Below are positions 1 to 63,808 of a DNA stretch of 64,000 nt, piece after piece. Numbering within the stretch: the first letter of the stretch is position 1; each line of letters starts with the position of its first letter. Origin of the DNA: Hippopus hippopus (Eukaryota; Mollusca; Bivalvia; Cardiida; Cardiidae); NCBI GenBank assembly GCA_946811185.2, contig OX328112.1, forward strand, positions 12,735,215 through 12,799,214, written 5' to 3'. The position numbers were made by a program, and so were the translations under genes. Below the pieces are notes generated by a model that saw nothing but the letters and a program-made list of their open reading frames with translations, was not told where the DNA came from and did not search any database.

Positions 1-167
1 CAATTTCATTGTGGCTCAAATGACGCAATTTTTCTTTGATAGGGTAGAAAACTTTGTGGGAACAGGAGAAAATGCTGGTTGCCAGCATTTTCTCCTTTTC
101 CCACAATGTTTTCAAAAGGCCTCTTCTTCAGGGTCGTTAAAAGGCGTCATTGTGTGGTAAAGGGTTA
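1..167 (+). mobile_element. TTAA-A element, young subfamily, cut by window start
   Basis: Begins inside the left arm; core hairpin near 60-115 and right end GTGTGGTAAAGGGTTAA intact. Nearly identical to copies at 14066, 27866 and 54639. Confidence 0.9.
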
Positions 168-222
168 ATCTGTCATCTGTGAATGCTTTGAATTTGGACC
201 AGTTTACCATTTTGTTGTTCGG

Positions 223-473
223 TTAGCCTTTTAGCACACAATCCAAAGTTTTAATGACCCTGGGAAATTAGATTTTTGAGAACATTGTGGAAAAAGGAGA
301 GAATACTGGTAACCAGCATTTTCTCCTTTTCCCATTATGTTTTTCTCCTTTTCCCACTATGTTTTCTACCCTGTCATAAACAAATTACATCATTTCAGCC
401 ACATTTAAATTGACATCTGCAAATGCAGTGAATCTGGACCTGTCGAAAATTTTGTCCTTTGGTACAGAGTTAA
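223..473 (-). mobile_element. TTAA-A element
   Basis: Left end degraded (TTAGCCTTTTAGCACACAAT), right end GGTACAGAGTTAA. A short internal duplication of the TTTTCTCCTTTTCCCA arm is visible at 322-362. Confidence 0.8.
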
Positions 474-570
474 ACAAAAAACCAAAAGCTTTATTCATGT
501 AGGTCTATTTGACTCATCTGGGGATGAAGGGGGCAAAGTATTTTGAATCTTCACCAAACATTCACAACTT

Positions 571-799
571 TTAACCCTTTACCAAACAATCCCCGGTTTT
601 CACGACCTGAGAAAGAAGCCTTCTGAAAACATTGTGAGAAAAGGAGAAAACGCTGGTTACCAGCATTTTCCCCTTTTCCCATAATGTTTTCTACCCTTCC
701 CAAAACAAATCTCAATTTTTGAGTCACAAATAATTTTGTCGTCTGCAAATGCTTCGAATTTGGACCAGTCTAAAATCATGTTGTTTGGTAAAGAGTTAA
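571..799 (-). mobile_element. TTAA-A element
   Basis: Complete, TTAACCCTTTACCAAAC to GGTAAAGAGTTAA, hairpin core at about 630-692. A truncated further copy follows at 796-905 using the same TTAA. Confidence 0.88.
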
Positions 800-969
800 C
801 AGCCCTGAGAGAAAAAGATTTTGAAAACACTGCAAGAATAGGAGAAAATGGTGGTAACTAGCATTTTCTCCTTTTCCAACAATATTTCCACACCTTCAAG
901 AGGCCCGAGATTTATGTCCACAAGTGTCATACTTTACCACCTAAGCAATTTGGGCTGGCTGCCTTCTTT

Positions 970-1220
970 AGATTGATTGATTGAATTTGCATTTACTGAT
1001 TGTTGCCCCCAGTTGCCCATATGGATGACACCCCCTGAAGGCTGTTAGTATTGTTACGGGGGATAGTGCAGATACAGGACAAAACCCATCCTAAGTTAAG
1101 CCTGGTTCTTTATTGTGCTTGGTGTATAGCACTGTCACACAGGACCTCAGTTTTATGTCTCACCCGAAAGACTATTAAAAATTTGAGATGGCTAGCAGTG
1201 GGAATCGAACCCACACTTGA
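970..1220 (-). mobile_element. SINE family S3, minus orientation
   Basis: Minus strand reads a tRNA-like B box (GGGTTCGATTCCC), then a body ending in a tail of AATC repeats (plus strand GATTGATTGATTG). The A box end is missing. It lies about 50 bp from exon p. Related copies are at 39889, 40160 and 58865. Confidence 0.75.
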
Positions 1221-1269
1221 AAAGACAGAGTCAAAATGTGAAGTATTACATACAGACATGGTTGCTTAC

Positions 1270-1422
1270 CTTTTGTTCTTTACCAGGAGTTTTTCTATAA
1301 AGTGTTTTCCATCATCTGAGACATTATCAAAACTTTCATCATCAAAGTCAAAATCTCCCTGTGTTACATTGGCCAGTGTTTCCGCATCTGTGTCACCCAT
1401 AAAGGGTGACAATCCTGTCAGC
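1270..1422 (-). CDS. MYLK: MYLK-like exon p: kinase C-lobe, last exon in window
   Basis: 153 bp, phase 2 to 2, acceptor TTATTTCAG, donor GTAAGC. Encodes [64 protein letters not shown] is the conserved helix G region. The remaining R-x-x-(A/C)-x-x-x-L-x-HPW segment and regulatory tail lie past position 1. Confidence 0.95.
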
Positions 1423-4400: not shown

Positions 4401-7400
4401 TCTCTTTCAATAAAGACATTACTTTAACTATAAATTGAAGTGTCTTTCAATAGGACATTAGAAAAATAAATTAAAAGCTCTTTCAATACAGACATAACTA
4501 TTAATACAAATTGCAATTTCTTTCAATAGAAACTTACATTACTATAATCATCAGTAAATGTATAAATTGCAGTCTCTTCCAATAAAGACATTGCTATACT
4601 TTTAGCTATAAACTATTACTTCTTTCAATAAAGACATTACTGTAACTATAGATTGATGTCTCTTTCAATAAAGATATTACTGTAACTATAACTTGATGTT
4701 TCTTTCAATAAAGACATTACTGTTACTGTAACTATAGATTGATGTCTCTTTCAATAAAGACATTACTGTAACTATAACTTGATGTCTCTTTCAATGAAGA
4801 CATTACTGTAACCATAAACCCATGTTTCTTTCAATAAAGACATTACTGTAACTATAAATTGATGTCTCTTACAATAAAGACATTCCATTTCTACAAAATG
4901 GAGTCTCCCTCAATATGGACATTACTAGAACTACTACTTGAACTGTTTATTAAAGTTTCCTTCACTAAAGGCAGTTTGAAAACCATAAATTGAAGTGTCT
5001 TTCAATAAAGACATTCCACTACTACAAAACAGAGTCTCCCTTAATCAGGACATTACTATTTATTTAACTGTAAATTAAAGTCTCCTTCAAGAAGAAATTA
5101 TCAAAACTATAAATTGAAGTCTCTTTCAGTAGTGATGTATACAAATACATATAGACATTTAGATTTCTAAACACTTACAACTCCATAACGAGAATCATTT
5201 TACGAGGAGCTTCAAATACATCCCACAACATCAAGATTTTTGGATGTTTCAGCTGGTTCATGATTTCTACTTCCAGTTGAATTTTCTTTTTCTCTGATTC
5301 CCGACATTTCAGAATCTTGGCAGCCCAGAGCTGACCAGTTGACTTCTCAATGCATTTGTACACATAGCCAAACTTCCCTCTGCAAATTGTAGATAAGAAA
5401 CATCTTAAGCATTTTCTCTTTTTCTAACAATGTTTTCTGCCCTTGCAAAGATGAAGTATGTCATTTGAGCCACAAGTATTGTGTTGTCTGCAAATTCGTT
5501 TACTTTGCAGATGACAAATAAAATGATACCGGTACTCAGAAGACTGGGTTCGTGTGGGAAAGTGTAGAAAAAATTGTGGGAAAAGGAAATGCTGGTTACC
5601 ATCATTTCCTCCTTTTCAAACAATGTTTTCAAATGCCTACTTCCTAACGGTCATTAGATGTCAGGGTTGTGTAGTAAAAGGTTAACTGTTTACCACATGA
5701 CAAAATTTTGGTCCAAATCAAAAGCTGGTGTAGATGACAAATTAATGCTGCATTTACATAAACCACGATGTACACGATGTCCACGATTTCAAACATTGCA
5801 AAACTTCACAATTCATTGCGTTTTTGAAGTAGCGAAACATATGTACAGCTTTTACATTAGCTACAATGTCCATGATTTGAGAGAAGCGTGGTGAGCGTGC
5901 AGCATCTTCAGACCAAATCGCATTGATCTTGAGGGAATGTGGCGCGGTAGCAATGATCATAAAGATCGTCACATAGTTTTTGACCGTCAAACATTTGGTC
6001 ACGATTACCCCCATTTATTATTAATCTTGTGAGAGTGTAACAGAACGTAGAAATCGCAGTAGAAGGTAGCACAACTTAACATACCTTAACGCGGTGCATC
6101 AGACCTTGATTGCCCATCGTATTTGATCTAGGTGTACTTTGAAACACAATAAGAGGATGGATGACCCATGCCATCAAATTATACCCAAATTGTGCTCAAC
6201 AAGTGACAATCTCAATCAAATCATTGACATAATTCGTAGCATGTTGTAGTAATCATTAGAGATCCTAGAGAGAACTTAAGAGAACGTAATGAAAATCATG
6301 GTATATCTTTACCAGAATTGATTTAGTTTTCGCTGAAGTGCGTAGATTAATATTAAATCGGTCTAATCGTGGCAAAATTTTTGACTGTCAAAAATTCTGT
6401 GAAGATTCTTACAATCATCCGGATAGCACCAAGTTCCCTCAAGATCAACACGATTCAATCCCATAAACCCACATGCTCACCATGCTCGTCTCAAATCGTG
6501 GGCATTGTGGCTTATGTAAACGTAGCACAAACATTGCTGAAATAGTGGGATTTGTTCTGGAGAGGTTATAAAACATTGTTGGAAAAGGAGAAAATGCTGG
6601 TTACCAGCATTTTCACTTTTTCCAACAATGTTTTCAAAAACCATGCGCAAGGTCGATAACAAGGTTCAAGGTTAGTGAACGTTCTTGTTCAAGGTCAAGG
6701 TCAAGGTTGCGTGGTAAAAGGTTAAAGTTGTCTCATGCACTGTATGTTTCTACGTCGGCTCTGTCTGACAAACCCCCCCCCCCTTTAATAAGTTGGAACA
6801 AATAGGTTTTAGTTTTTCAAAATTTGTAACAGCATGCCTTTCAAATGACACCTCTTATCGAATAATTTATAACTTCCTTAATGACTTTAACTCTTTACCA
6901 CACAATCCTGAGTTTTAATGACCCTGAAAAAGAAAGCTTTTGAAAACATTGTGGAAAAAGGAGAAAACAGCAGTTTTCTCCTTTTCCCAAAATGTTTTCT
7001 ACTGAATTCAAGGTGAGTTTCAGCATTTGAGCCACCTTTGATTTGTTGTCTGCAAATGCTTTGAATTTCTGTCATGTGGTAAAGTGTTAACTCTTTACCA
7101 AACCACAAAAATTTAGACCTGTCCAGATTCAAAGCAGTAATTTGTAGACCACAATAAAATGTGAATCAAAAACTGAAATTCGTTTTTTGGAGAGGTACAT
7201 GTACAAAACATTTGCAAAAAAGGAGACAATGCTGTCTTTGCTAAGGTCGTTCAAGCTTGGGATTGTGTAGTATCGAGTTAAACATAGCATGTACTTAACA
7301 CTATATCACAGAGCATGTGTTTTCATGTCCGTGCACAAAACATGCAATCTGATCTACACTGTCCACTTTGCTGAGAAATTCTAGACAAAAGCAACATTGA

Positions 7401-10400
7401 AATTACAATTACTGGGGTTTTATTTCATGACTGAAAAAGTTTGTTTGGTTTATTTTGCACTCTAAGGATCAAGTATAGTACTACACAATACTACAGGCTG
7501 ACTTAACTCTTTACCACATGACAGAAATGTAGACTTGTCCAAACTGAAAGCATTCACAGATGACAATTTAAATGTGGCTCAACTGATAGAATTTGTCTTT
7601 CATAGGATAGAAAATGTTGTGAGAAAAGGAGAAAATGCTGGTTACCAGCATTTTTTCCTTTTCTCACAATGTTTTCAAAAGCGTTCTTCCCCAGGGTTGT
7701 CAAAAGTTGGGATTGTGTGGTAAAGGGTTAAGGCAAACCACAAACTAGTACAAAGATGACACAAAGATAAATAATTGCAGGAAAAGGAAATGTCTCGGGG
7801 AGTGATGAGGAACAAGAACACATGCGGGTGCCAATGCTCAGTTGCAAGCAGTTGCTTTTCAAAGAAAAATCTAAGTCTAAAAAACACTTCATGCGGGTGC
7901 CAACACTCAGTTGCAAGTACTTGATTTTCAAAGAAAAATCTAAGTTTAAAAAACACCTCATGCGAGTGCCAACGCTCAGCTGCAAGTACTTGATTTTCAA
8001 AGAAAAATCTAAGTCTAAAAAACACCTCATGTGGGTGCCAACACTCAGCTGCTAGTACTTGCTTTTCAAAGAAAAATCTAGTTTAAAAAACACCTCATGT
8101 GGATGCCAACGCTCAGCTGCTAGTACTTGCTTTTCAAAGAAAAATCTAAGTCTAAAAAACACCTCATGTGGGTGCCAACACTCGGCTGCTAGTACTTGCT
8201 TTTCAAAGAAAAATCTAAGTCTAAAAAACACCTCATGTGGGTGCCAACGCTCAGCTGCAAGTACTTGATTTTCAAAGAAAAATCTAAGTCTAAAAAACAC
8301 CTCATGTGGGTGCCAACACTCAGATGCTAGTACTTGCTTTTCAAAGAAAAATCTAAGTCTAAAAAACACCTCATGTGGGTGCCAACACTCGGCTGCTAGT
8401 ACTTGCTTTTCAAAGAAAAATCTAAGTCTAAAAAACACCTCATGTGGGTGCCAACGCTCAGCTGCAAGTACTTGCTTTTCAAAGAAAAATCTAAGTCTAA
8501 AAAACACCTCATGTGGGTGCCAACACTCAGCTGCTAGTACTTGCTTTTCAAAGAAAAATCTAAGTCTAAAAAACACCTCATGTGGGTGCCAACACTCGGC
8601 TGCTAGTACTTGCTTTTCAAAGAAAAATCTAAGTCTAAAAAACACCTCATGTGGGTGCCAACACTCAGCTGCTAGTACTTGCTTTTCAAAGAAAAATCTA
8701 AGTCTAAAAAACACCTCATGTGGGTGCCAATGCTCAGCTGCAAGTAGTTGCTTTTCAAAGAAAAATCTAAGTCTAAAAAACACCTCATGCGGGTGCCAAC
8801 ACTCAGCTGCAAGTACTTGCTTTTAAAAGAAAAATCTAGTTTAAAAAACACCTCATGCGGATGCCAATGCTCAGCTGCAAGTACTTGATTTTCAATGAAA
8901 ATTTACATCCAAGAAGGGACATAACTGTGTGAAAAATACTTTGATGGCTACCTGCTCCTGTTGTATGAGTTCCCCTTTTGATAGTTAAAAACCTTGTCCA
9001 AGTTTGAAGTAAATATTTTCAATAATAACATAGGTATTACAAAATGTCAAAGTTTTCGCATGACGACAACACCAGGGCTATGACGGCATTTCGTCATTTT
9101 CTTCAAAGACACCCAAGCTAAAAACATCAGAAAAACAGTCTTTTCAATCTTGTTTTGGCCAGAACACCTAACAAAGTAGCCAATAGTGTAGATCCAAGAT
9201 CAGACTGCACATTCTGTGCATTCTGATCTTGATCTACACTGTCTGCAAAAAAAAAAATTTAAAAACGACTTACTTCCCAATTTCTTCCTTACACTCATAA
9301 AACTGTTCAAAGTTACGTCCACTTTGTACTGTAACTTCTCGATGTTCAAATGGTATTTCATCTGAAAAAGACAAAATTTTGTGTTAAACATTTATAATTT
9401 ATGACAAATTTTCAATGATAACTCCTTTTGTTGTCAATTTTAATGTCCAAGCAGACGAAAACTTCAGAAACTTCTCAGTACAACTTTACAGTTGCCATAC
9501 CAAAAAAGAAAGGTTAGAATTATAAAGCCGTGGAAAACAGCAGCAATCAAAGGTACACTGCAAACAAGCTTCAACCTTTTACTACATGACCTTGACTTTT
9601 AATGACCCCAAAGAATTTTTGAAAACATTGTGGAAAAAAGGAGAAAATGCTGGTAACCAGCATTCTCTCCTTTGTCCACAATGTTTTTCCTACCAGTCTA
9701 TAGACAGTCATTCTTGAGTCATGTTTATTTTGTAGCCTGCAAATGCTTCAATTCGGACAAGTCTAAAATTTTTTTGCGTGGTCAAAAGTTAAGAATCATT
9801 GCCAATCAATGCATTTACTTCTCTACTTGTCTAAATAGATACATCTAGACAGAGCTTGTGAAAGCCGGGAAAATATTTCATCTGAATAACAACACTCCTG
9901 CCCCCACCCCCTCCTTCCCCTTTGTAAAAAAAACCCAGTGTAGACAAGAATGTAACACAAGAATAACACAAATCAAATTCAGAAGCATTCGAATTTCAAA
10001 TGAAGAAAAAAAATTCTTTAGTTTCAATGTCTGTTTGAACCACAAATTTGAAAACGATCTCCATGGGGAAATTAAAGCACCAAATAAACCTACATGTATC
10101 AGACATTTTCATCCGAGAAATACAACCCAAAATATTGTAACATGATAGTTGCTTTAGTATACAGCCTTTCAGCAAAGTGGACAGTGTATATCAAAGATTA
10201 GGCTGCACGTTTTGTGCAGCCTGATCTTGATCTACACTGGCCGTACAGGCAACTCACTATAGTTGTGAAAGGTACCTTAAGAGTTAAGAAGTATGTTAGT
10301 ATGGAGGAACACTGTTTTAATTTGTTTTAATTTAATGATTTGAAATATGATTTCTAATCAAACTACTGTTAGTAGGTAGATTACATTATCTGCAAGAGCT

Positions 10401-13400
10401 TCTAACAGATTACCAGAGCAGACAACTTTGAAAACATTGTAACATATGGATAAATCAATACAAATCATCTGACGGCAACAACTTTTAAGTACAAATTGCC
10501 CATTAGGATCAAATTATCCTGTTGCCACAATGTCCTTGCAGACAATAAATATAATTAAAAAAAAAAATTGAATGGCAAAGACACATTGCCTATTATGATC
10601 AAATTATCCTTTTGCCACAATGTTTTCAAGGGTGAGCTGATGCAAGGCAAAAGGTCTTGTCTGGGGGACGTGTTACAAGTATGAGTACTAACAAACTGAA
10701 GCGTATGGAAATTAATATTAAAATAACTTGAGAAAAAAAAATAAACCAACCATCTAAAAGGTCCAGATCCATGTTAGCAATAAAATCCAAGTAAGAAAAC
10801 AAAAGATCACATGCAATATGAAGTCTTCCCAAGAAAGGTCACAAAAAATTGAAGTCCACTTCTCGTAAAATTTCACACAAAAATAGTACCCTGTTCAGTA
10901 CACCAGTAACTTCAACTTAACAGGCAGGTAATTTATCACAGTTTAACACTTTACAAAAAATCAAAATTTTAAACCTGTTCCGAATGCAAGCATTTGCAAA
11001 CAACAAAATAAAAAAATTATGATAAAAAGAAAAATGAAATTTGTTTTTGCAAAAGTAGAAAACATTGAGGGGAAAAAGGAGAAAATGCTGGTTTACCAGC
11101 ATTTTCTCCTTTTTCCCTCAATGTTTTCAAAAGCCCCCTTCTTTGCAGTCTCTAAAACTCCAGACATTTTGTTAAAGGTTAAAAGCTTGACAAAAAAAAA
11201 ATTAATGTTGAGTAACAAAAGAAACTGCCTATTCATTTATAAATTATTAGTGCAATACAAGAACAGCAAATCATGTCAGGACAAAACGAAGGACAAAAAG
11301 AATAGATACAATGTATGACAAGCCTAAAAAACATGCCAATACCCTCAACTCTCAACCCTTTACCACACAATCCCAAGTTTCAATGACCCTGTAAAAAGAG
11401 GGCCTTTATTGTGGAAAAGGAGAAAATGCTTGTGACCAGCATTTTCTCCTTTTCCCACAATATTTTCTATTCTATAGTAGAAAAAATCCATTATTTGAGC
11501 CACCTTTGATTTATCATCTGCAAATGCTTTCAATTTGGACTTTTAACAACCCTGAGAAAGAAACCTTTGGAACACAAGGTGGGTAAAGGAGAAAATGCTG
11601 GTAACCAGCATCTTCTCCTATTCCCACAATGTTTTCTACCCTTCCCAAAACAGATTTTAATTTTTTCAAGTCATATTTATTTGTTGTCTGCAAATGGTTT
11701 CAAATCGGACAAGTCTAAAATTTTGTTATTTGGTAAAGACTAATAGTGCCTATCACAACAATAATCCCATTTTTGTCTAGTGCAGATCTAGATGGGACTG
11801 CACAAAACATGTAGTCTGATCTTAGAACAAGACTGTCTGCTTTGATAAGACATTGTGCACAAGAGCAATCTTCAAACTGCAATGACACGGGTGTTATTTC
11901 TGGACTGAAAATTTGGGTTTATTTGGCAATCTAAGGGTTAACTCTTTCCATACGACAAACTTATTGAACTGTGCAAATCAAAGCACTTGCAGATGCCAAA
12001 TTAAACGTAACTCAAATACTGGGATTTGTCTATGAAAGAGAGAGTAGAAAACCATTTGGGGGAAGGAGAAAATGCTGGTTACCAGCATTTTCTCCTTTTC
12101 CAAAATTGTTTTCCATAGCCCTCTCTGTCAGGGTCGATAAAACTCAAGATTGTGTGGTAGAGGGTTAAAAAACCACTACAACATGCAAACTGAAGATTCA
12201 ACATTCCTTTGTTAAGTGTCCCATCTGATTCATCCTTATAATGGCCTGAAAAAGTTTAAAGTATGTTTACATTGATTGGTTGTATGGTGTTTAACACCAT
12301 TTTCAACATTTTTTAGTTATATCATAGCAGACCATGCTTTCCTGGAGTTTCTTTTAACCAGTATTCCACACAATATTCTTTCAAAGCTATTGGCTGCTTT
12401 CTGAAAAAACCATGGTAGAAACAATGGTCAGCATTCTCAAGTCCTGTTCAATGATTAATATCAACCCTCGAAAAGAAAGTGGCTGGGCCAGGCATTAAAC
12501 CAGCGACTCCATGTTCTCAAGTCCTGTATGCTACCAACTAAGCTACCGGGACTCGGCAGTACTGTTACAAAAAGGGTAAATCCAAGATCAGATTGCACTG
12601 CACATCACAATTTATAGTCTGATCTGTGGTCTTACCTGTCCAATACCGAGTGAAGAAATGACTGAAAACATCAAAGTTTCATTAATTTTGGAGGTCCTAG
12701 GTTTGATCCATTGCATTTTTTGTAATATTTGTGCTCTCCCGAAATCCAAGCTCCTTGTGACAATTCAGGAATATTTGGATGATTACAAGCTTGGATTTAA
12801 ATATAGCTTTAGAAAGATCCCAGCAAAACAAAAAAAACAAGTTTAGGATAAGTCACTTCTCCATTTATCACCCTACCCTCCTTTTCCATTTGCCACCCTA
12901 TCTTCTTCCATGGGCCTAAGATTAACACTTTACCAAACAATCCCGAGATAAAATGACTCTGAGTAAGAAAGTTTTTGTAAAACAATGCAGGAAGAGAAGA
13001 AAATGCTGGTAACTAGCATTTTCTATTTTTCCCCCACAATATTTTCTACTCTTTCAAAGACAAATCCCTCCTTTTATGCCACCTTTTAATTATTCTGCTA
13101 ATGCTTTCAATTTGAACAAGTTTAAAGTTTTTATTGTTTGGTAAAGAGTTAAATTGTAACATCCTCAAATGAATTTGCAGAAGACTGTAAAAATACCTAC
13201 ATAAATGAGGGATAATCTGACAGAATTAAATTTTGTTTCTTTGAAGCAATTTTCCTTTTATCACGATATTCTCATGAAGTGTTATGATGCAAGCTGCAAA
13301 ATGTCATCTATAGGAGATAACAACTTTTAAGTTTTAATAAAGTGATGCAGTTTTTCGACTTGTCCAAATGGAAACCATCTGCAGTTGACAAATTCATTGT

Positions 13401-49400: not shown

Positions 49401-52400
49401 TGTGAAAAGAAAAAAACAGTATCATCCAGGAAATTACATGGACATAGAAAAAATCTTTTTTCCAAAGGTCAAATATCAGGAGAAAAGGATTAATACCTTG
49501 TTACTCTTTTCCCAACAGTGTTTTTAAAACATCTCGAAGGGCAGGAGGTGATTTTAAATTGCAGTCAAAATTGTCCATGTCTCACTAAAAACAACTATTG
49601 TGTGGTCAGTTCAAGTTTTAGTCGCCGTCAGAAAAAACAAATTTCAAAATCAGGCAAAAAGTAAACAAAAGATAGAGTGTCCTGGCAACTTTTAATCTAG
49701 CTCTGAAATTAATTTCTCTGCCAGCGACTAACACTTGGACTGACCGAACAATAACAGATTGTCATCTTCAAAATAATTTCCATACTTTTAAATAGTATGA
49801 TTTAAATTTAAATGCATTTCAACTCCCGCTCTGTGTACTTTTGGAAGCTATTGTTATCCCCTGCCGAAGGTGGACGGATACAGTTTTAGCGTTGTCCGTC
49901 CTTCAGTCCGTCCGTCCGTGTGTTCGTCCAGGAGAATATCTCCAATACAATTGGACGGAATTTTGTGAAACTTTATACATGTGTACAATAACTCATTCCA
50001 CTGAGACACTTTTTTTTTGATTCGATGAAAAATTGCTGACTGGGAGCGATTTTAAGTTACGCGGTCAAGTAAATTTTTCAGCGGGGGATATCATTTCAAC
50101 GAAACTGCTTGTTTCTTTAAATTTTGTTACTTGGATAAGAGTCAGATGAAAAAAAAAAAAACTTTTACCTTTGAAATGTAATCAAAAACATGCAATTTGA
50201 AATATTACATGAAAGCAATCATTAAAATCCTTTAATCACTCAGGTAACCATGGAAACAAAATTAATTTCAGTCTCAACAAGAAATAAATCTAACCCCAAC
50301 CTTCATAGAGACACCTCATGATGCAGCAACCACAATATTGCTATCAAGAACACTTTCTCAGGTTAACAAACTACTCAAAGCAAGCTATTTTCTCCATGTA
50401 CCGCATTTCTTTTTTTAAAACTTTCTCTACATCAAGATCATAATTTGCTACATCTTAACTTCTTTTTTTCAACTACAATAAAACTATTGGTATACAAACT
50501 GCATTCTGTTTCTTGTATTTGACATATTACTAAAAATGTTCAGGTATAAAAGGGGAATCACTTTTAACCCTTTACCAAGTTTAAATGACCTACAGGAGGA
50601 TGGCTTTTGAAAATATTAAGTGAACAGAAGAAAATACTGGTAATACAAACATTTTGTCACAATAATTTCAACCTCCATCAAAGATAAATCCCAATGGTTA
50701 AGTCATACTTAATGAATTTGTAGTCTGTAAATGCTTTGGGTTTGGACAAGTCCAAAAATTTGTCATTTGGTAAAGAGTTTACAAACATCATTTTCCGAGA
50801 ATTCCTCTTATGTAACGCAAAAAATGTTGGTTATCTAACACAAAAAAAAGTTCTTCAGTAGAAGCATTGTCTACCTGCAGACTTTATTCTTTGTCTTTCA
50901 CAAAACCATTTTCTAACATTTTTAGCCGATCCCTGGTAGCTCAGTTTGTAGCGTGCAGGACTTGAGAACAGGGACATGGGTGCCATCCCTGGCTAGGCCA
51001 ATTCTTTCCTAAGACTGATGATGGTCAGCGCAACAGGAATCATTCCTCTCCCACTGCTGACTATTGTTTTTGCAATGTATATGAGGGAAAGCAGCCAGTG
51101 GCTTGGAAAGAAAATTGTGTGGAGTACCGGTAAGAAAAACTCCAAGAAGGCATGGATAGGTGCACTGGCCACCGCAATATAACTGAAATAATGCTGAAAA
51201 GGGTGTTAAACACAATACAATTCATCAATCAATCAATCAATCTAAAACATTTAACTATAGTGAGAAATTGTTATTAACTCTTTACCAAATGACAAGATTT
51301 TAGACTGGATCAAACTGGAAGCAAATAAATAAAATATTGCTAAAATGATGATTTCTGTCTTTTACAGGGTAGAAAGCATTTGAAAACATTGTGGGAAATA
51401 GAGAAAATGCTGGTAACCAGCATTTTTTCTTTTTCCCGCAATGTTTTCTAACCTTTCAAAGAAAAATCCAATCAGTTGAGTAACATTCAATTCATCATGT
51501 TCAAATACTTTCAATTTGGACAAATCTAAAAAATGTTCATGTGTTGAAAATTTATTTTTTTTAAATTAAAATCATTATACCATGACTATAATAACTTCCG
51601 ATCACGTAAGCTCCCCTCCTCCCTAAAAAAACTCATCAATTAAAAAATCTAATTTCCATGTCAATACCAAAAAGAAGTATAAAATCAAATGTAATCTACC
51701 AATGTCACATATGCTATCTTTTCTATTTGAGGACCAGTAAATAAACATTTCTTACAGATATGTACTGGCCAAACTTTTATTACTGTATAGTGGCTATTCA
51801 AGTTTTTTGTTCACCCTTTACCACACAATCCCAAGTTTTAGTGACCATTGGCTTCTGAAAACATTGTGGGAAAAGGAGAAAATGCTGGTAACCAGCATTT
51901 TCTCCTTTTACCACAAGGTTTTCTTCACTTTCAATGACAATTACCACCATTTTAGCTAAATTGAACTTGTCATCTGCAAACGCTTTCAATTTGGGCCAGT
52001 CTAAAATTTTGTTGTTTGATAAAGAGATAATCTTGTTCAGCAATGTAAAACTTGAAATTTCACAGTTAACTGTAGTTTTCATGTATCACAGCGAATATTT
52101 TTTGAAATAAAAGATTGTACAAAATTAATGATTTTATCTAAATAACTCCCCTCCCCTCCCAGGTTCAGGAAGTTTTTGAAAGCCCTGGGTTCCTATTTAC
52201 TAACCATTTTCATTGATATTCTTAGTCTTATTCTTCAAGACTTTTTTTTACATTTGAAAGTAACACAACTTCTGATTGGCTAAACCAAAAGGTTTAGCCA
52301 ATCAGAAGTTGTGTTACTTTCAAATTTAGAAAATTCCGATTGATTGCATGGGGTTTAATGCCATTTTCAACACCATTTCAGTTATATCACTGCAGCCAGT

Positions 52401-55400
52401 GCACCTACCCATGCTTTCCTGGAGTTTCTTTTACCAATACTTCACACAATATCCTGTCCAAGCCACTGGCTGCTTTCCCACAAAACCATCATCGAAACAA
52501 TGATCAGCAGTGAGAGAGGAATGAATCCTGTCGCCATGGCTATCATCAGTACCCAGAAAGAAACTGGCCAAGCCGGAAATCTAACCAGCGACCCCCTGTT
52601 CTCGAGTCCTGTTCACTACCCACTGAGCTATCAGGGCTCAGCAGAAAATTCTGAAGAACAAGACAAAGACAGTTCTTAAGAATGGTTGGTGAATACTTAC
52701 CCTGGCAACTAGGTATGTTGGTATTATTGACTTTTGTCATTTCAACGGTAACTGTTTTTTTTTCGTCACAGCAACAGCTCACATGTTGATGTCTTCCTAG
52801 GTTTTACCAGGACTAAACTTGGGCTTAGGAGTGCCTTACTCAAGGACATTTCCTGGGCCCTAATTCAACACCTTAAGCACTAAGCCTAAAATGACCCTAA
52901 TCTTTTGTAACAAAAAGTAGCATAAGTAACCTACTTGTACTGCAGTAAAAATTCCTTAGCCATTCATCACATTGTTTTTCTCTACTAATCCTCCCAACAC
53001 CATATGTTTTGTATCAATAGTAACATCTATATAATACTTGTTTCCTTTTCAATACAGCTCAAAGACATAGACCTATAACCCCATAATAATGTCTTTTCCA
53101 AATGCGGGCAAAATTAACACACATAATTATCACACTAAAAGTAGACATGTAGAATAAAGACACTTAAAATTTGATATGTGTGGTAAAGTATTGTGGCAAG
53201 TGGGGAAAATGCCCATTATGAGCAATAATTGTTCATTTGCCTCAATGCCCCCCCCCCCCAACCAATAAATAACTGCAGAAACATGCACGATAGAAAGGGT
53301 TGAACAATATTAATGTGACCATATCTGAGTCATGCTATAGCAAAAGGGGGCTTACTGCATCTCCGTGAAACATCATACCAGGCAAGTCATCACATGATTA
53401 TAGATCTATATAATCCATTTTGTTTAACAACCTATTGAATCATGAGGAACATTGGTCCTTGGGCAAGCAGAAAATTTACCAACAGTAAAAAGTTTCTGCC
53501 CAGGTCAGCCTGTGCAGACTGCACAGTCTGACCCCGGATTGATGCTTTTTGCAAATGCATTAGGCCCCCTTTTCACACAGCATGCCTTCTATAGTTATTA
53601 TGACAGTGCTGGGGACCTAGTGGCAGGCCAATGACCGAAATCATCCTCGTAACATCATTGATGTATGTTTGATGGTTGAATGGTGGTCAAAATCTCTTTT
53701 TACAATATTTCAGTTAATATATCAGGGAGGACAGTACACCTACAAGTGTTTCTTTATCAACACCATAAAGAATATCAGACAATTATTGTATTTAAAGACC
53801 AACTGCACACAGTGTGAAATCATTATGTAATATGGTGACAAATCTAAATCATATTTTTTGTACTAGTTACTCTTTTTACCAAACGACAAGTTTGGACTGG
53901 ACCAAATTGAAAGCATTTGTTGATGACAAATGAAGTATTGCTTCAATGGTGATATCTGCATTTGATAGGGTAGAAAACATGGTGGGCAAAGGAGAAAATG
54001 CTGGTTACCAGCATTTTCTACTTTTCCCACTGTTATCAAAAGGCATCTTCCTCAACTTTGTTAAAACCCAGGTTTATGTTGTAAAAGGTTAACCCTTTAA
54101 CAGATGACAAAATTCTAGCCTTGTCTGAAATGCAAGCATTTTCAGACATCAAAACAAAAATGACTCAAAAACTGAAATTTGTTTTTGGAAGGATAGAAAA
54201 CATTATGGGAAAAGGACAAAATGCTGGTTACCAGCATTTTCTTCTTTCCCAACAATGTTTTCAAAATCCTCTTTCCCTAGGGTCATTAGAACATCTGATT
54301 GTGTGCTAAATGGTTAAGGCATTTTCACCAGGTTTGCTACCAACCAGATAAAAAAGTAGAATGTAATACTATGGGTAACAATTCCCATGTCTGTGAAACC
54401 CCCCCCCCCCCACACCATGAACACATCCCCCATCAACCACACCATGAACAGTTATATCAGTGAGGACAGAACACCTATAAATATTTCCTAGTAGTTTCCC
54501 ACACTATGAACAGAAAAGTAAAATAAGCAAGGTAAAAAAGGCTTAACAGATTTCATCAGACTATGTGATCCAAATTCTTGCTCGAAAGCTGTCTAGTTCT
54601 TAGGATTTTTTTTAAACTCTTTACCAAATGACAATATGTTAATCCTTTACCACACGGCAAAATTTGAGACCTATCCAAATTGAAAGCATTTGCAGACGAC
54701 AATTTCATAGTGGCTCAAATGACGCAACTTTTCTTTGATAGGGTAGAAAACTTTGTGGGAAAAGGAGAAAATGCTGGTTACCAGCATTTTCTCCTTTTCC
54801 CACAATGTTTTCAAAAGGCCTCTTCTTCAGGGGTGCTAAAAGGCGTCATTGTGTGGTAAAGGGTTAAACTAGTCCAAATTCAAAGCAGTTGCAGAACACA
54901 ACATAAATGCAACTCAAAAATTGAAATTTGCTTTGGGAAGGGTACAAAACATTTAAAGTTGCTTTTGTTCAAAATGTTTCAGGAAAGCAGAGTAGATCAA
55001 GGATCATAGTGCACATTTTTTTGCAGACTGATCTGGATCAATACTGTGCACATTTTTTTGCAGACTGATCTGGATCAATACTGGCCACAATGTCACTGTC
55101 AATTAAGTTGTGAAAGGCACCCTAAGGGACAATACTGGTCCATACTGAAAAGGATAAGATTGTATTGGAGTTTAATGCCATTTTAACAGCTTAGGTCATG
55201 TCATGGCAGTCAGTGCACCTGTGCATGTGTTTCCTGGCTTTTTCACACAAGTACTGATACAACCCTCTTTCCAAGTCACTGACTCCCTTTCTCACATGTG
55301 TCAGAGGTGAGAGGCGAAAAATCGTCAAAAAGAAAGTTTGCATCAACCAGGTATCAAACTCACAACCACACAGGTCACTAGTCAGATATGCTAACCACTG

Positions 55401-58400
55401 AGCTACCCGGGCGGGCTAAAATGATAAGAAGACGAGCTACCTGGGCAGGCTAAAATGATAAGAAGACAACAAACTAAATGTAGCTCGTAAGATGGGATTT
55501 GTCTTTGAAAGGGCAGAGAAGAATCATGGGAATAGACCAAAATGGGAAAACACAAAAGTAACATTTACCCCTTTTTTCCCATGATATTCACAAAAGCCCA
55601 GTGCCTCTAGCGTAAAATCACTGGATTGGGCAGTATTGGGTTAATATTTCAAATTTTTCTGGGCTACCCCTTTCAAAATTACTGACAGATACTTACATTT
55701 CATCATTTAAATACAGAAAAAGCTTTCAACCATCACAAATCTGAGAGCAGTATCAACCTTTAGGCTGCTAGGCACAACTCAAAGACCTTTTGCAGACAGT
55801 GTAGATCAAGATCAGTCTGCACAGACATGCAGTCTGATCTTGGATCTACACTGTCCAATATGGAGATATTTTTCCCCAAAAGACAACTTTGAAATAACAG
55901 TATTTGGACTTTTACTATTGACTTGAAAGTTTCATATTAGTTATTTAGCATGTTAGGGGTTAACTCTTTTACACACCAACAAAATTCTGGATGGGTCTTA
56001 ATTCAAAGCATCTGCAGTGTACAGTTTAAATGTGACTCAAATGATGGGATTTGTATCAGAAAGGGTAAAAAAAATTGTGGAAAAAGGAGAAAATGCTGGT
56101 AATCAGCATTTTCTTCTTTAGTATCCACAATGTTTTAACCCTTTACCAAACAATCACTGGTTTTAACGACCCTAATGTAGAAGCCTTCTGAAAACATTGT
56201 GGGAAAAGGAGAAAATGCTGGTGACTAGCATTTTCTCCTTTTCCCACAATGTTTTCTACCCTCCCAAAGTCAAATTTCAATTTTTGAGTCACGTTTATTT
56301 TGTCGTCTGCAAATGCTTTCAACTTGGACAAGTCTAAAATTTTGTTGTCTGGTAAAGGGTTAAAGAGTTTGTTTATCAAGCTTATTATAATAGGAGATTG
56401 TATGCCCATTGGGGTTAATTTTTAGTCAGATGGCTTGTTGGTTTTGGTTTTAAGGCAATTTTTTACATTAATTATCATTCCAGGCAAAGAGTGAACCAAT
56501 CCATGCTTTCCCAGAGTTTCTTTCAGAGCTTTCAAGAATGTTCTCTCTGAACAAATGGCTGCTTTCCTGATATAAAATCATTGAAAAAATGTTCATTGGT
56601 GAGAGAGGAATGAATTCAATTGCAGTAACCATCATTAATCTTGGAAAGAATTTAGCCAAGCTGGCAATCAAGACAGCAAGTCTGGGGTTTCAAGCCCTGT
56701 ATGTTATCCGTTGATCTATGAGGATTGGCCAAGACTCTTACAAACACACTGCCTGCAACATGCAGTTTCCGTTCTTACGTAAGTTTCTGTTTTGTGCAAG
56801 TGTTCTGTAAGGCAAAATCTAATGTAGTCGTAAAATGCCGTCTTGGATTAGCCTGCATCGACTGTGCAGGCTGATCCGAGACGACACTTTACGCAAATGT
56901 CAGAATGCCTCTTTTCATGTGTTGAAGGTCACATCTCAGACTCTTACAAACTCATCTCACACAACATTGGACAGTGCAGATCTAAGGCCAAACAAAGCAG
57001 ATTCTTTCATCTGATCTTCATCTATACTGTCCAGAAAAAGCACCTAAATTTGCCCCGAGCATGCTTAAACCTTTACCACAAAATCCCAAGTTTTAATGAC
57101 CTTGAGGAATTTAAGAAGCCTTTTGAAAACATTGTGGGAAAAGAAGAAAATGCTGGTAACCAGCATTTTCTTCTTTTTTCCACAATATTTTCTACCATAT
57201 CATGGACAGAAATAATAATTTCCGACACTTTCAATGTGTTGTCTGCAAATGATTACAATTTGGATGAGCCAAAAATTTTGTTGTTTGATAAAGGGTTAAG
57301 TGTTTTGGCGCCAAAATATATATTAACTTAACCTCTATCGACAACTGAATTACAACCCAATGAAACTCAGATTTTTATCCAATCGGTGTAACCAAACAAG
57401 CTGTTAGTGCTAATCTTAGTAAGATCAGACTGTACATTCTGTGCAGTCTCACCTTGATCTATGTCATTCATAAAAGCCCCTGTTCTCTCCTGTGGCACTG
57501 ACAAGGGTTAGAGATGCTGATGGGGAAAGAAAAAAACATGACAAGCTGTAATACTCCACTATATGACACCACAATGGCCACCTTACACCCAAACTCCTGC
57601 TGTTCAAATATTTTGTGATTAAAATGTCTAAATGTTATACAGCATTTCAAAAGGTAAGAAAATGATTCACCAGCAACTCAATCCATTTCATTAGTATGTT
57701 ATGAGGAAAAAAAATTATAATTTGATTTCATTATTTACCAAATGACAAAATTTTGCACTTGTTCAAATCAAAAGCATTTGCAGATGAAAGTTGCTAAAAT
57801 TATGATTTCTCTTTTTTATAGGGTAGAAAATGTTGTGGGAAATGGAGAAAATGATGGTTACAGGCATTTTCTCCTTTTCCCACAATGTTTTCAGGAGTCT
57901 AATCTACCAGGGTCATTAAAACTTGAGATTGTGTGGTAAAGGGTTAGCCAAGTTTTAATTACCTTGAGGAAAAGGTCTTTAGAAAACAATGTGGAAAAAG
58001 GAAAAAATGCTGGTAACCAGCATTTTTTCCTTTTTCCACAATATTTTCTGCCCTATCAAAAAGGACTCCTATCATTTGGACAACATTTAGTTTGTTGACT
58101 GCAAATGCTTTCAAACTGGTCAAGTATAACATTCTGCTGTTTGGTAAAGAGTTAACGATCCAGTTGAAGAAGGTTTTGAAATCATCTTTGGATATTAGTA
58201 AAATGCTGGAAAGTGACATTTTTCTCTGTATTTTATGATATAATTTGGCAAAGGCGTAAGTACAGGGTGTCTAGAAAGTAAGGTAACATTTTTTTTTTAT
58301 GCTTTTTAAATGGCTCTTAATTTCAGATAAAGAGATAAAAATATATATACATGTATATTGTGAATGTTGGGCGTGGAAAGATCATAAAAGCCAATCACAT

Positions 58401-61400
58401 TGAAAACGTCTTTAATTGCAAAATTGACACCAAAGTCAAAAAGGTACTTCTGATTTAAAATCTGTAGAAAAGTGCATAATGTTACAAAAACTGAATAAAA
58501 TTATCACATAAAAAACTTTCATATACTATATTCATGTATATATAATTTTGTCTCTACATCTGAAATTAAAAGCCATATAACAAATGTACAAAAGTGTTAC
58601 CTTACTTTCTGGACACCCTGTATTACCACCTAAAACAGCAATATCATAGAAACATTTAACTTATCCATGGTATCTGGGTTATTTGTCTCAGGTACAGTGA
58701 CTCTGTTTAGCTTTCAGACAGAAATAACCTCCATCAAACTTTGCATAGAGGCTTTGCCAAGCCAGACTTAAAACCACCAACCCCTCTTTTCTTTGCATGA
58801 ATATTACTGCTTTTTCATATTGCATTTATTTATGGTCGCTACCGGTAGCTGTAAATCACTTTTAGTGCAAGATACAGGACAAAACCTATACAAAGCTATG
58901 CCTGGTTTTTAAATGTGCTACGTGTGTAGCATAGCACTGTCACACAGGGCCTCAATTTAATCCTTAGGCTCCTGATTGCAACTCATGGACATCTTGCAGA
59001 CAGTTCAGATCAAGATCAGGCTGCACAAAACGTGAAGTCTGCTCTTGGATCGACACTGTCCAAGGAGATATTTTCCCCTAAAGATAACTTGGAAAAAAAA
59101 AACATTTGGGTTTTCACTATGGGTGTGAAAGCTTTATCTTACTTATCTAGCAGCTTAACTCATTACCAAACGACAAAATTTTAGGTTTGTCCAATTCGAA
59201 AGCATTTGCAGACGACAAAATAAAAATGACTGAAAATTTGAAATTTGTTTTGTGAAGGGTAGAAAACATTGTGGGAAAAGGAAAAAAAGATGGTTACCAG
59301 CATTTTCTCCTTTTCCCACAATGTTTTCCAAAGGCTTCTTTCTCAGGGTCATCAAAAGTAGGGATTGTGTGGTGATGGGTTAAGGGTTAAAGTCCTATCG
59401 GAAAGACAATCTGCAGTTGCAGTTGACCAGCCATCAAAATAGAACCAACACTTGGAAGTTTCATGAGATTACCAATCCTATGCGTTACTACATGAACAAA
59501 TCCAGCTGTCTTATGTGTTACCAGCTGCAAAGACTTAAATTTAGTGTAATAACTCTTTACCATACAATCACAAATTTTAATGGCCCTGAGTTAACAGCCT
59601 TTTGAAAACCTTATGGGAAAGGGGGAAATGCTGGTAACCAGCATTTTCTCCCTTTCCCACAAGGTTTTCTACACTTTTACAGCCAAAATTCATCATTTCA
59701 GCAACATTCTGTTAGTCATCTGCAAATGCTTTCAATTTGGACCAGTCTAAAAATTTCTTGCATAGTAAAGAGTTAAACTAAACTGTCAAGGTTAAAATCT
59801 TTTGCCATTTGGAACAGACTCCAAATTCTTTAATTCTATTTAAGAGGTTACTGAAAGAGATGCATTCGATCATATTTACATTAATATTTCAGATGTGTCA
59901 CAACAAAGGGAGATAATTCATTGTCCTTAATTATGCTATCTAAATAATTTAGAAAATTCATCATTTATCATAAAGGGAGGTAACTCAATCATGTGCAATC
60001 ATATTATGTTAAAACTAAAATACCTTCATTCACAGTTAGCCGACAAAAAGTGTCTGTATCACCATAAGCATTGTAAGCCTCACACACATATTCTCCAGAA
60101 TCTTCTGGAAACACTTCAGGAATCACCAGTGTTCGGACATTTCCGTCATTCACCATGCGACACACAGGGTCAGTGGCGGGGATTTTTCGGTTATTGTGAA
60201 CCCATACTATATCAAAGGGTGGGGTACCTAGTTTTTACAATCATCAACAAAATCATAGCACAGTGAAACATGCCATGCATCCAAAGCAATAGCTTGTCAT
60301 AGTAAAACCATAATTATAAGTGTCAACATTGCATGTCATAGCATATCTTCAACATTGCATATCATAGCATATCTTATCAATGACTCTTTCATCTACCAAA
60401 TTTATGAGCCAGGCTCTGGCAAATGGGGGCTTAATGCATCTCCGTGGTCCACTATACAAAGCAAGTCATCACGATCATGATTATGGATCCATAAAGTCCA
60501 TTTTATCTAACAACCCACTGAATCATGAAGTAGAATAGTCCTTAGACAAGCAGAAAATTTACCAGTAACAAGAAGTTTCAACCCGTGTCAGCCTGCACAG
60601 ACTGTGCAGGCTGACATGGGTTGATGCTTTTTGCAGATGCATTAAGCCCCCTTTTCACAAAACATGACTCATATGAATTTGACTTCTTGAGGGCTAAAAA
60701 TACGATCTTTAGACACGCAAAAATTTTTTTTATCTCATTGCCTTAACTCTTTACCAAATGACACAATTTTAGACTGGTCCAAACTGAAAGCATCTGCCGA
60801 CGACAAATTACAGATGGCTCAAATGGTGGAATTTGTTCATGATAGAGTAGAAAACATTGTGGGAAAAGGAGAAAATGCTGGTTACCAGCATTTTCTCCTT
60901 TTCCCACAATGTTTTCAAAAGACTTCTTCCAAAGGGTCGTTAAAACTCGGGATTGTTTGGCAAAGAGTTTAACGAAACAAATTATATAGAACCAAGATCA
61001 TACTGCAACCTCTGTACTGTCTGATCTTAATCTATGCCTATGTCAGAATATTTTCATAATGTTCCACTATAGCAAAGAAAAACACTTTTCATCTGCCCTA
61101 AGCTTTTAACCACGGAATATTCAAGTTTAACTAATAATAAGCACATGCACATGTAATCAACCAATAGTAATTAATATTTTCTTTACTTCACTAAATTTTA
61201 ACTCTTTACCACACAGAAAAATTTTAGCTTTGTCCAAACTGAAAGCATTTGCAGTCGGCAAATTAAATGTGACTCAAAACATGAAATGTGTATTTCATTG
61301 TGTAGAAAACATTGTGTGAAAAGGAGAAAATGCTGGTGACCAGCATTTTCTCCATTTCCCACAATGTTTTCAAAAGCTTTTGGCTCAGGGTCATTAGAAG

Positions 61401-62690: not shown

Positions 62691-62734
62691 CTGTGAATGA
62701 GAAAGACAGAAATCTATATAGTTTTATCTTTCGC

Positions 62735-62950
62735 TTAACCACACAATCACCAGTTTTAACGACTGAGGAAGAAGCCTTTTGAAAACATCGTGGGAAAAGG
62801 AGAAAATGCTGGTAACCAGCATTTTCTCCTTTACCCACAATGTTTTTTAACTATTAAAGACAAGCTCCATCATTATAGTCTCATTTAGGTTGTTGTCTGC
62901 AAAATTAATACATTCAATTTCTAAATTTTTGTTGTTTGGTATAGAGTTAA
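62735..62950 (-). mobile_element. TTAA-A element near exon a
   Basis: TTAACCACACAATCACCAG (terminal CCCTTTA deleted) to TTTGGTATAGAGTTAA; hairpin 62790-62842. Confidence 0.85.
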
Positions 62951-63193
62951 TTAGTTCTATTTTGAATTTTTATGCCCTCTCAGTAAACAGACTTTGAAAA
63001 CAGAGGGAAAAGGAGCGCTGCTTTGAACAAGCTACTGCTTCTTTTCTTATGTACCTTTAATTTCCATGACAAAACTTTTTTTTCTTGTCCTCAAATTGTT
63101 TCTTTTTTTCATAAAATGATTCATAACATTTTTTAATAAGGTCTAGAACTATTCAGTACAGAAACTGGATAAGTTTTCAACTATGAATTTTAC

Positions 63194-63559
63194 TTAACTC
63201 TTTGCCAAACAACAAATATGTAGACTTGTCTAAATTGAAAGCATTTGCAGACAACACATTAAATGTAGCTCAAAAGATGGAATTTGTCTTAGGATAGAAA
63301 ACATTGTGGCAAAAAGGAGAAGAGCTGGTTACCAGTATTTCCTCTTTTTCCCGCTATGTTTTCCAAAGCCTTCTATCTCAAGCATTTGCAGACAACAAAT
63401 TAAATGTAGCTCAAAAGATGGAATTTGTCTTAGGATAGAAAGCATTGTGGGAAAAAGGAAAAGAGCTGGTTACCAGTATTTTCTCCTTTTCCCACCATGT
63501 TTTCCAAAGCCTTCTATCTCAAGGGCATTAGAATTCTGGATTATGAGGTAAAGAGTTAA
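63194..63559 (+). mobile_element. TTAA-A element with 141-bp internal duplication
   Basis: TTAACTCTTTGCCAAACAAC to GAGGTAAAGAGTTAA. The segment from AGCATTTGCAGACAACA to TTCTATCTCA occurs at 63240 and again at 63381, so it has two hairpins. Confidence 0.9.
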
Positions 63560-63808
63560 CAAAACAAATTGGTGTTTCAAAAAACTGTAAGAGAAAAAGC
63601 TTAATATGAAAACATTGAAGGAAAAGGAGAAAATGCTGGTACCTAGCATTTTCCCCTTTTCCCCCGTTTTCTACCCTGGCAGAGCCAAGAAGATTCAATT
63701 GAGCCACACTGAGACAATACTAAACATTCTTTTAACTACATTGAATTTGTCGTCTGCAAATCCTTTCAATTTTGACCAGTCTTAAATTTTGTTGTGTGGT
63801 TACAGAAT
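63556..63808 (-). mobile_element. TTAA-A element abutting the previous one
   Basis: Starts at the shared TTAA; right arm poorly conserved, hairpin GGAAAAGGAGAAAATGCTGG at 63620, far arm to GTGTGGTTACAGAATTC. Confidence 0.75.

What the first reader, a model, noticed from the sequence alone, without database searches (positions are those of the whole stretch)
1..63808. TTAA-A: a very dense palindromic MITE family with piggyBac-type ends
About 70 copies and fragments in 64 kb, all inside one gene's introns and in both orientations. Seen directly: ends TTAACCCTTTACCACAC / GTGTGGTAAAGGGTTAA, TTAA on both sides, ~225 bp, no coding capacity. TTAA target and CCC-starting inverted ends are established piggyBac traits; assignment to a piggyBac-type transposase is inference. 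I do not recognise a named family.
Basis: partly seen in the sequence, partly recalled or inferred. Interest (0 to 1): 0.8.

Follow-up and report, generated by a model that had tools for sequence, protein, structure and literature searches.

The report
Million-copy palindromic TTAA MITE in clam
A 229-bp non-coding hopping DNA with piggyBac-type ends has multiplied to roughly a million copies in what looks like a bivalve genome; the kind of element is known, but the scale and its strongly conserved hairpin middle are unusual.

Summary
The window carries 88 copies or fragments of one 229-bp element (36 near full length, 24.8% of bases; shuffled control 0), in both orientations. Ends read TTAACCCTTTACCACAC; the centre is a 33-bp perfect inverted repeat.

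Genome-wide the 17-bp end occurs 49,796 times exactly and a 31-bp core 95,422 times (controls 0). Twenty 10-kb stretches put the family at 17% of the 1.07-Gb genome (95% 12.5–21.9%), about 0.9–1.1 million copies and fragments.

TTAA duplication is shown: one copy sits in another repeat whose empty paralogues hold a single TTAA. The genome encodes many piggyBac transposases, several with open frames and near-identical copies. Among 18 loci read, ends could be identified in about five families and none matches; the nearest shares 15 of the first 18 bases. 'piggyBac-type' is well supported; the driving transposase is not found.

The core is more conserved than the ends. In a young subfamily rare changes do not differ significantly between core and arm (p 0.41, left half only), so the constraint more likely acted on source copies. 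Nearest known kind: coral CMITEs, with unrelated sequence. Host: probably a bivalve; species undetermined.

The parts
571..799 (+). near-full-length copy, 229 bp
6887..7090 (+). near-full copy; abuts the next fragment (7087-7234) sharing one TTAA
7503..7731 (-). near-full copy
9571..9792 (+). near-full copy
10943..11179 (-). near-full copy
11938..12168 (-). near-full copy
12922..13152 (+). near-full copy
14066..14294 (-). young-subfamily copy, 3.1% different from the copy at 54639
15470..15693 (-). near-full copy
19381..19609 (-). near-full copy
21888..22116 (+). near-full copy
23679..23904 (+). near-full copy
24748..24977 (+). near-full copy
27866..28094 (-). copy with TTAA at both ends inserted into another repeat; empty paralogues at 49748-49853 and 29147-29249 hold one TTAA
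29898..30100 (-). near-full copy
32681..32887 (+). near-full copy lacking the hairpin tip
35320..35547 (-). near-full copy abutting the next one, one shared TTAA
35544..35776 (+). near-full copy
37645..37865 (-). copy inserted in another repeat family
41617..41846 (-). near-full copy abutting 41843-42070
41843..42070 (-). near-full copy
43093..43306 (-). near-full copy
46448..46675 (-). near-full copy
47526..47754 (+). near-full copy abutting the next
47752..47981 (+). near-full copy
48812..49040 (+). near-full copy
50564..50781 (+). near-full copy, hairpin decayed
51810..52030 (+). near-full copy
54089..54317 (-). near-full copy abutting 53873-54092
54639..54867 (-). young-subfamily copy; fold tested
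56135..56363 (+). copy used as orientation reference
57065..57299 (+). near-full copy
59155..59383 (-). near-full copy
59549..59776 (+). near-full copy
60743..60971 (-). near-full copy
61198..61425 (-). near-full copy

Best explanation
It is a non-autonomous cut-and-paste DNA transposon of piggyBac type: a TTAA MITE of 229 bp with short inverted ends (CCCTTTACCACAC) and a long central palindrome. A piggyBac-family transposase made elsewhere in the genome cuts it out and inserts it at TTAA, duplicating the TTAA. Its own TTAA ends serve as targets, so copies end up abutting. Repeated bursts of a few source lineages produced about a million copies. The palindromic core was kept in the source lineages, most likely because it helps transposition or amplification. 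Shown: anatomy, TTAA duplication, abundance, young and old subfamilies, presence of piggyBac transposases. Inferred: that a piggyBac transposase moves it, and what the core does.
For: Ends and length. TTAA within 3 bp of both predicted ends in 50 of 106 near-full copies, at one end in 44, at neither in 12, in copies whose median identity to the consensus is 84%. Empty paralogous sites with one TTAA for the copy at 27866-28094. 17 of 270 neighbouring hit pairs abut end to end, each with one TTAA at the junction. Genome-wide exact counts 49,796 for the 17-bp end and 95,422 for a 31-bp core, controls 0. 17.1% coverage of 200 kb sampled. A young subfamily with 1,086+1,054 pattern matches, rare changes about 1% in the 47 copies analysed. 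119 PF13843 matches, several with open frames; copies of one family up to 99.8% identical. Transposase L029 matches piggyBat 9c0f (4.8e-40) and piggyBac 6x67 (2.6e-37).
Against: No transposase gene with matching ends found: the nearest identified (505-aa family, TTAACCCTATACTCCACAG) agrees in 15 of the first 18 bases (counted from the strings), 11 of 17 positions after the TTAA. Only 18 loci were read, and in several families the ends were not found. MITE-like stretches in transposase loci look like nested or decayed copies, but for the 505- and 495-aa families an ancestral relation was not excluded. Post-insertion selection on the core was not shown.
Confidence: 0.82

Rival explanations
1. 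It is a MITE of another TTAA superfamily (Kolobok), like the T2-MITEs of Xenopus.
For: Kolobok also targets TTAA (PMC6004289 passages); one Kolobok lineage is especially rich in bivalves (PMC9587614 abstract).
Against: Kolobok ends are said to be RR, T2-MITE ends AGGRR (PMC6004289); these begin CCCTTTACC. No Kolobok search of the genome was made.
Confidence: 0.07
2. It is a long terminal repeat-like part of a composite piggyBac transposon (MITE, transposase, MITE), as in KolobokP.
For: In L030 and L036 MITE copies lie on both sides of the transposase frame in the same orientation.
Against: A second copy (L046, another chromosome) is 99.7% identical to L030 over all of its 3,295 bp, beyond the MITEs on both sides; and left of the MITEs L030 (126-250) still matches the 5' region of the related 505- and 495-aa transposons. 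So the transposon runs on beyond the left MITEs. The ends of the 491-aa element were not found, and on the right a larger duplication is not excluded.
Confidence: 0.03
3. The palindromic copies are kept by the host for a function (for example small RNAs or chromatin), so selection after insertion preserves the core.
For: The core differs less than the arms (8.8% against 21-23% non-consensus), also in close pairs; compensated double changes 27 against 9.7 in shuffles, none of 1,000 shuffles reaching it; one copy folds at -91.9 kcal/mol, z -9.3.
Against: In the young subfamily rare changes are 8 of 1,222 in the left half of the core and 15 of 1,551 at non-CpG sites of the left arm (20 of 1,739 with CpG), p 0.41 for the former pair; the test is small, and two of the five copies dropped beforehand had core changes. 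Most changes in the stem are one-sided (365 against 50 two-sided). The shuffles do not control for relatedness.
Confidence: 0.08

Closest known systems
CMITE, coral (Acropora) piggyBac-related MITEs (PMC2872659; parts 1-3 of 4 read)
   Same: TTAA on both sides, ends mostly starting CCCTTT, non-coding, an internal region more conserved than the ends, copies found in arrays, probable piggyBac partner
   Different: about 100 bp against 229; about 1,600 copies (A. millepora) against about a million; the published 60-bp internal sequence shows no similarity (score 15.0 against 15.3 in shuffles); CMITE arrays are attributed to slippage, here abutting copies share one TTAA
piggyBac / piggyBat transposons (PDB 6x67, 9c0f)
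   Same: TTAA target and CCC-starting ends (CC[C/T]T as given in PMC2872659); related transposases are encoded in the same genome
   Different: the MITE encodes nothing and its ends were not found on any transposase gene whose ends I could identify
T2-MITE / Kolobok (PMC6004289, passages)
   Same: TTAA target, short non-autonomous elements, several subfamilies
   Different: ends AGGRR rather than CCCTTTACC
KolobokP with LTDR-INT-LTDR structure (PMC9587614, abstract and outline)
   Same: repeat unit with its own short inverted ends, found in bivalves; TTAA target as for Kolobok in general
   Different: no composite structure seen: in the 491-aa family the transposon runs on beyond the MITEs

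Membership tests
piggyBac-type (TTAA) MITE | short, non-coding, homogeneous length | tested here: met
   229-bp consensus, aligned copies 203-235 bp, longest ATG frame 46 codons
piggyBac-type (TTAA) MITE | TTAA target-site duplication | tested here: met
   TTAA at both ends in 50 of 106 copies, one end 44, none 12; empty paralogues with one TTAA for one copy, weaker or failing candidates for others
piggyBac-type (TTAA) MITE | inverted ends starting CC[C/T]T (motif as given in PMC2872659) | tested here: met
   consensus end TTAACCCTTTACCACAC; the other end reads CTCT in the consensus (TTAACTCTTTACCAAAC) and CCCT in many copies
piggyBac-type (TTAA) MITE | autonomous piggyBac element with the same ends in the host | tested here: inconclusive
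   18 loci read, 119 matches; ends identified in about five families, none identical
piggyBac-type (TTAA) MITE | excised and inserted by a piggyBac transposase | not testable with these tools
   needs an excision assay
Kolobok / T2-MITE | terminal RR (AGGRR) motif | tested here: not met
   ends are CCCTTTACC; motif from PMC6004289
CMITE | conserved 60-bp internal sequence | tested here: not met
   no similarity above shuffles
KolobokP-like composite | transposase flanked by the repeat units as its ends | tested here: not met
   491-aa family only: homology of two copies, and with related transposons on the left, runs beyond the MITEs; the 492-aa family (L036) was not tested with a second copy

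The most novel reading that the evidence does not exclude
A cut-and-paste MITE that reached Alu-like numbers (about a million copies, roughly a sixth of a 1.07-Gb genome) because a palindromic core acts in cis as an amplification or transposition enhancer, letting it be cross-mobilised by piggyBac transposases whose own ends differ.
Probability: 0.25. Interest if true: 0.75.

Novelty: new member of a known kind. Interest (0 to 1): 0.5.

Why it matters
A single family of this size would be among the most successful DNA transposons known to me (recalled; the calls give only comparison points: 239,126 MITE insertions of all families retrieved from four wheat-group genome drafts, PMC6200218 abstract; about 1,600 CMITE copies, PMC2872659). 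It offers a very large natural series for asking what a MITE must carry in cis to amplify, and it may be hidden in 'unclassified', SINE or rolling-circle fractions of bivalve repeat annotations (speculation).

Tried and rejected
Composite piggyBac with MITEs as its terminal repeats: suggested by direct MITE copies on both sides of the frames in L030 and L036, contradicted for the L030 family by L046 and by the match of its left part to related transposons.

Excess of MITEs in the orientation of the transposase frame: an impression in a few loci, some outside the transposon; too few independent events, not claimed.

Singleton analysis for post-insertion constraint: singletons were if anything commoner in the core than in the arms; at this divergence the count is saturated and I do not rely on it. 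It was replaced by the young subfamily. Of 52 copies displayed, five (other subfamilies or shifted) were dropped by eye before counting, leaving 47; two of the five have changes in the core. Only bases 18-80 were compared.

Compensatory changes in the stem: an excess over shuffles, but shuffles ignore relatedness; not taken as proof of selection.

Empty sites: one search gave 368 raw matches across joined flanks, many of them MITE against MITE or the copy's own flank; its output was cut, so I saw part of the list, and one search shows six sites chosen by eye.

Host by name: not established. The best named matches of the transposase are bivalves (Mercenaria 73%, Pecten 60%, Ruditapes 57%); two unnamed ones are closer (82%, and 98% over 66% of the length). 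Eighteen large contigs (C1–C17 of 36–82 Mb; C18 at least 31.5 Mb) and 1.07 Gb resemble giant clams (T. maxima 18 putative chromosomes; genome sizes 1,048, 1,176 and 1,320 Mb, the first taken to be T. crocea from the column order; PMC11700175 passages); only a lead.

Rfam and ARAGORN on the window: one tRNA-like match at 39888-39960 in Rfam, none in ARAGORN; nothing on the MITE at the gathering threshold.

Full report
Observation. The 17-bp end TTAACCCTTTACCACAC occurs 50 times in the window with at most two mismatches, against 0.02 expected. Thirty-one copies of 203–235 bp were aligned to a 229-bp consensus, to which they are 77–90% identical. A profile of these finds 88 copies or fragments in the window at E 0.001, 36 near full length, covering 24.8% of bases, and none in a Markov-shuffled version of the pooled window and sample. 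Orientation is balanced (40 and 44 of 84). Ten exon-like pieces with limits set by eye are free of copies; seven lie in frames with kinase, I-set or fn3 domains, and the kinase exon 3446-3682 is nearest MYLK4 and twitchin.

Scale. The window is G000:C17:12735215-12799214 of a 1,068-Mb genome in 34 contigs. The exact 17-bp end occurs 49,796 times (control 0), a pattern for full-length elements has 10,052+9,911 matches, some elements counted on both strands, and a 31-bp stretch of the core occurs 95,422 times (control 0). Twenty 10-kb stretches at round positions, one or two on each of C1–C17, hold 210 hits in one search and 205 in the pooled one: 10.25 per 10 kb (bootstrap 7.4–13.15) and 17.1% of bases (12.5–21.9%), scaling to 1.10 million copies and 183 Mb. 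Two of the 20 stretches hold none. Exact-end density in that sample (10 in 200 kb, 50 per Mb) agrees with the genome (46.6 per Mb). Calibrating the two whole-genome counts by the sample (22 and 10 exact matches) gives 0.89 and 1.02 million. The window is about three times richer than average in exact ends (141 per Mb). These counts include fragments; near-full copies scale to about 0.34 million.

Anatomy. In 100 near-full copies, mean non-consensus is 12–14% in the terminal 17 bp, 21–23% in the subterminal arms and 8.8% in the 71-bp centre. The consensus centre is a 33-bp perfect stem with one unpaired base. One copy folds as RNA at -91.9 kcal/mol, z -9.3. The two ends differ in the consensus: one reads CCCTTTACCACACAATC, the other CTCTTTACCAAACGAC.

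Target site. Of 106 near-full copies (a slightly wider cut than the 100), 50 have TTAA within 3 bp of both predicted ends, 44 at one, 12 at neither. The copy at 27866-28094 lies in another repeat; paralogues at 49748-49853 and 29147-29249 run through the site with one TTAA, and L014:4908-5018 aligns through it with a gap at the site. Of the five other sites shown: paralogues of 37645-37865 carry TTAA one base off; for L011:2268 one paralogue (L017) carries TTAA and one (L020) does not; those for L016:5262 and L016:7859 carry none; the 35544 match is to a MITE end. Seventeen of 270 neighbouring hits abut end to end with one TTAA at the junction. With 2,246 TTAA sites in 264 kb this looks like random use of TTAA sites, many of which are MITE ends (my estimate, no call).

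Conservation of the core. Pairs of close copies and nearest-neighbour comparisons also show a lower rate in the core than in the arms. That could mean constraint after insertion or subfamily differences in the arms. In 47 copies of a young subfamily (52 of the 1,086+1,054 matches were displayed, 5 dropped) rare changes, seen in at most two copies, are 8 of 1,222 in the left half of the core, 15 of 1,551 at non-CpG sites of the left arm and 20 of 1,739 with CpG sites (p 0.41 for 8 against 15), while the common polymorphisms lie in the arm. The test is small, but the simplest reading is that constraint acted on source lineages. Compensated double changes exceed shuffles (27 against 9.7, sd 3.1), 14 of 19 types seen once, but 365 one-sided changes remain.

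Transposases. PF13843 gives 119 matches in the genome (a lower bound) and 0 in 14 control genomes, many with open frames. Eighteen loci were read. Families and ends: 505 aa (L029, L039; TTAACCCTATACTCCACAGAA, same at both ends, about 3.9 kb); 495 aa (L040; left end TTAACCCTATCCTCCACAG); 534/602/485 aa (L032, L035, L042; TTAACCCTTTATATAC or TTAACCCTTTAGATAC); 548 aa (L041; TTAACCCATATA); 593/519 aa (L031, L044; TTAACCCTAGTCATGC and TTAACCCTTGTCATGC). For the 599/571, 590, 491, 492 and 472-aa families and L037/L038 the ends were not found. Copies of one family are up to 99.8% identical, so piggyBac transposition has probably been recent. None of the identified ends is the MITE's; the 505-aa family is nearest (11 of 17 positions after the TTAA, 534-aa family 9). 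The stretch shared by two copies of the 491-aa element contains three MITE copies, and a decayed MITE-like stretch lies downstream of the frame in the 505-aa family, so MITEs appear to have inserted into, and travelled with, these transposons. The transposase L029 is a piggyBac relative by Pfam (1.6e-94) and by sequences of solved structures; its best named relatives are bivalve proteins, Mercenaria 73%.

Comparison. Coral CMITEs (PMC2872659) share TTAA, CCCTTT ends and a conserved interior, but differ in length, number and sequence. Kolobok has RR ends and T2-MITEs AGGRR (PMC6004289). A bivalve repeat survey says MITEs occupy a considerable share of bivalve genomes and left them unclassified (PMC10294476 passages); a Mercenaria repeat table lists almost no piggyBac (0 and 228 copies in two columns; PMC8905726 passages). 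I found no description of this family in seven literature searches; repeat databases were not available.

Verdict. A new family of a known kind, piggyBac-type by its target site and ends, with unusual abundance and an unusual conserved palindrome; its transposase is unidentified.

Noticed in passing
window 7821-8901: 69-bp minisatellite, 15.7 copies at 94% matches, open in several frames and so listed as long reading frames.
   Followed up: no
window 4204-4884: degenerate 40-bp tandem arrays.
   Followed up: no
window 63239-63523: 141-bp tandem duplication made of MITE sequence: part of a MITE repeated in tandem.
   Followed up: no
window 39888-39960: tRNA-like match in Rfam (44.8 bits) not called by ARAGORN; may be a tRNA-derived SINE.
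   Followed up: no
reading frames 24545-24751 +, 27192-27551 -, 35048-35278 +, 40892-41176 +, 46139-46357 +, 55711-55926 +, 58930-59184 +: recurring translated motif like S(V)DQDQTAQN(V)QSDL (read by eye): another interspersed repeat.
   Followed up: no
L037, L038 and similar rows: a piggyBac-like family with split frames at several places (matches 52-182 and 197-349 of the profile); two copies 97% identical over 3.6 kb.
   Followed up: partly
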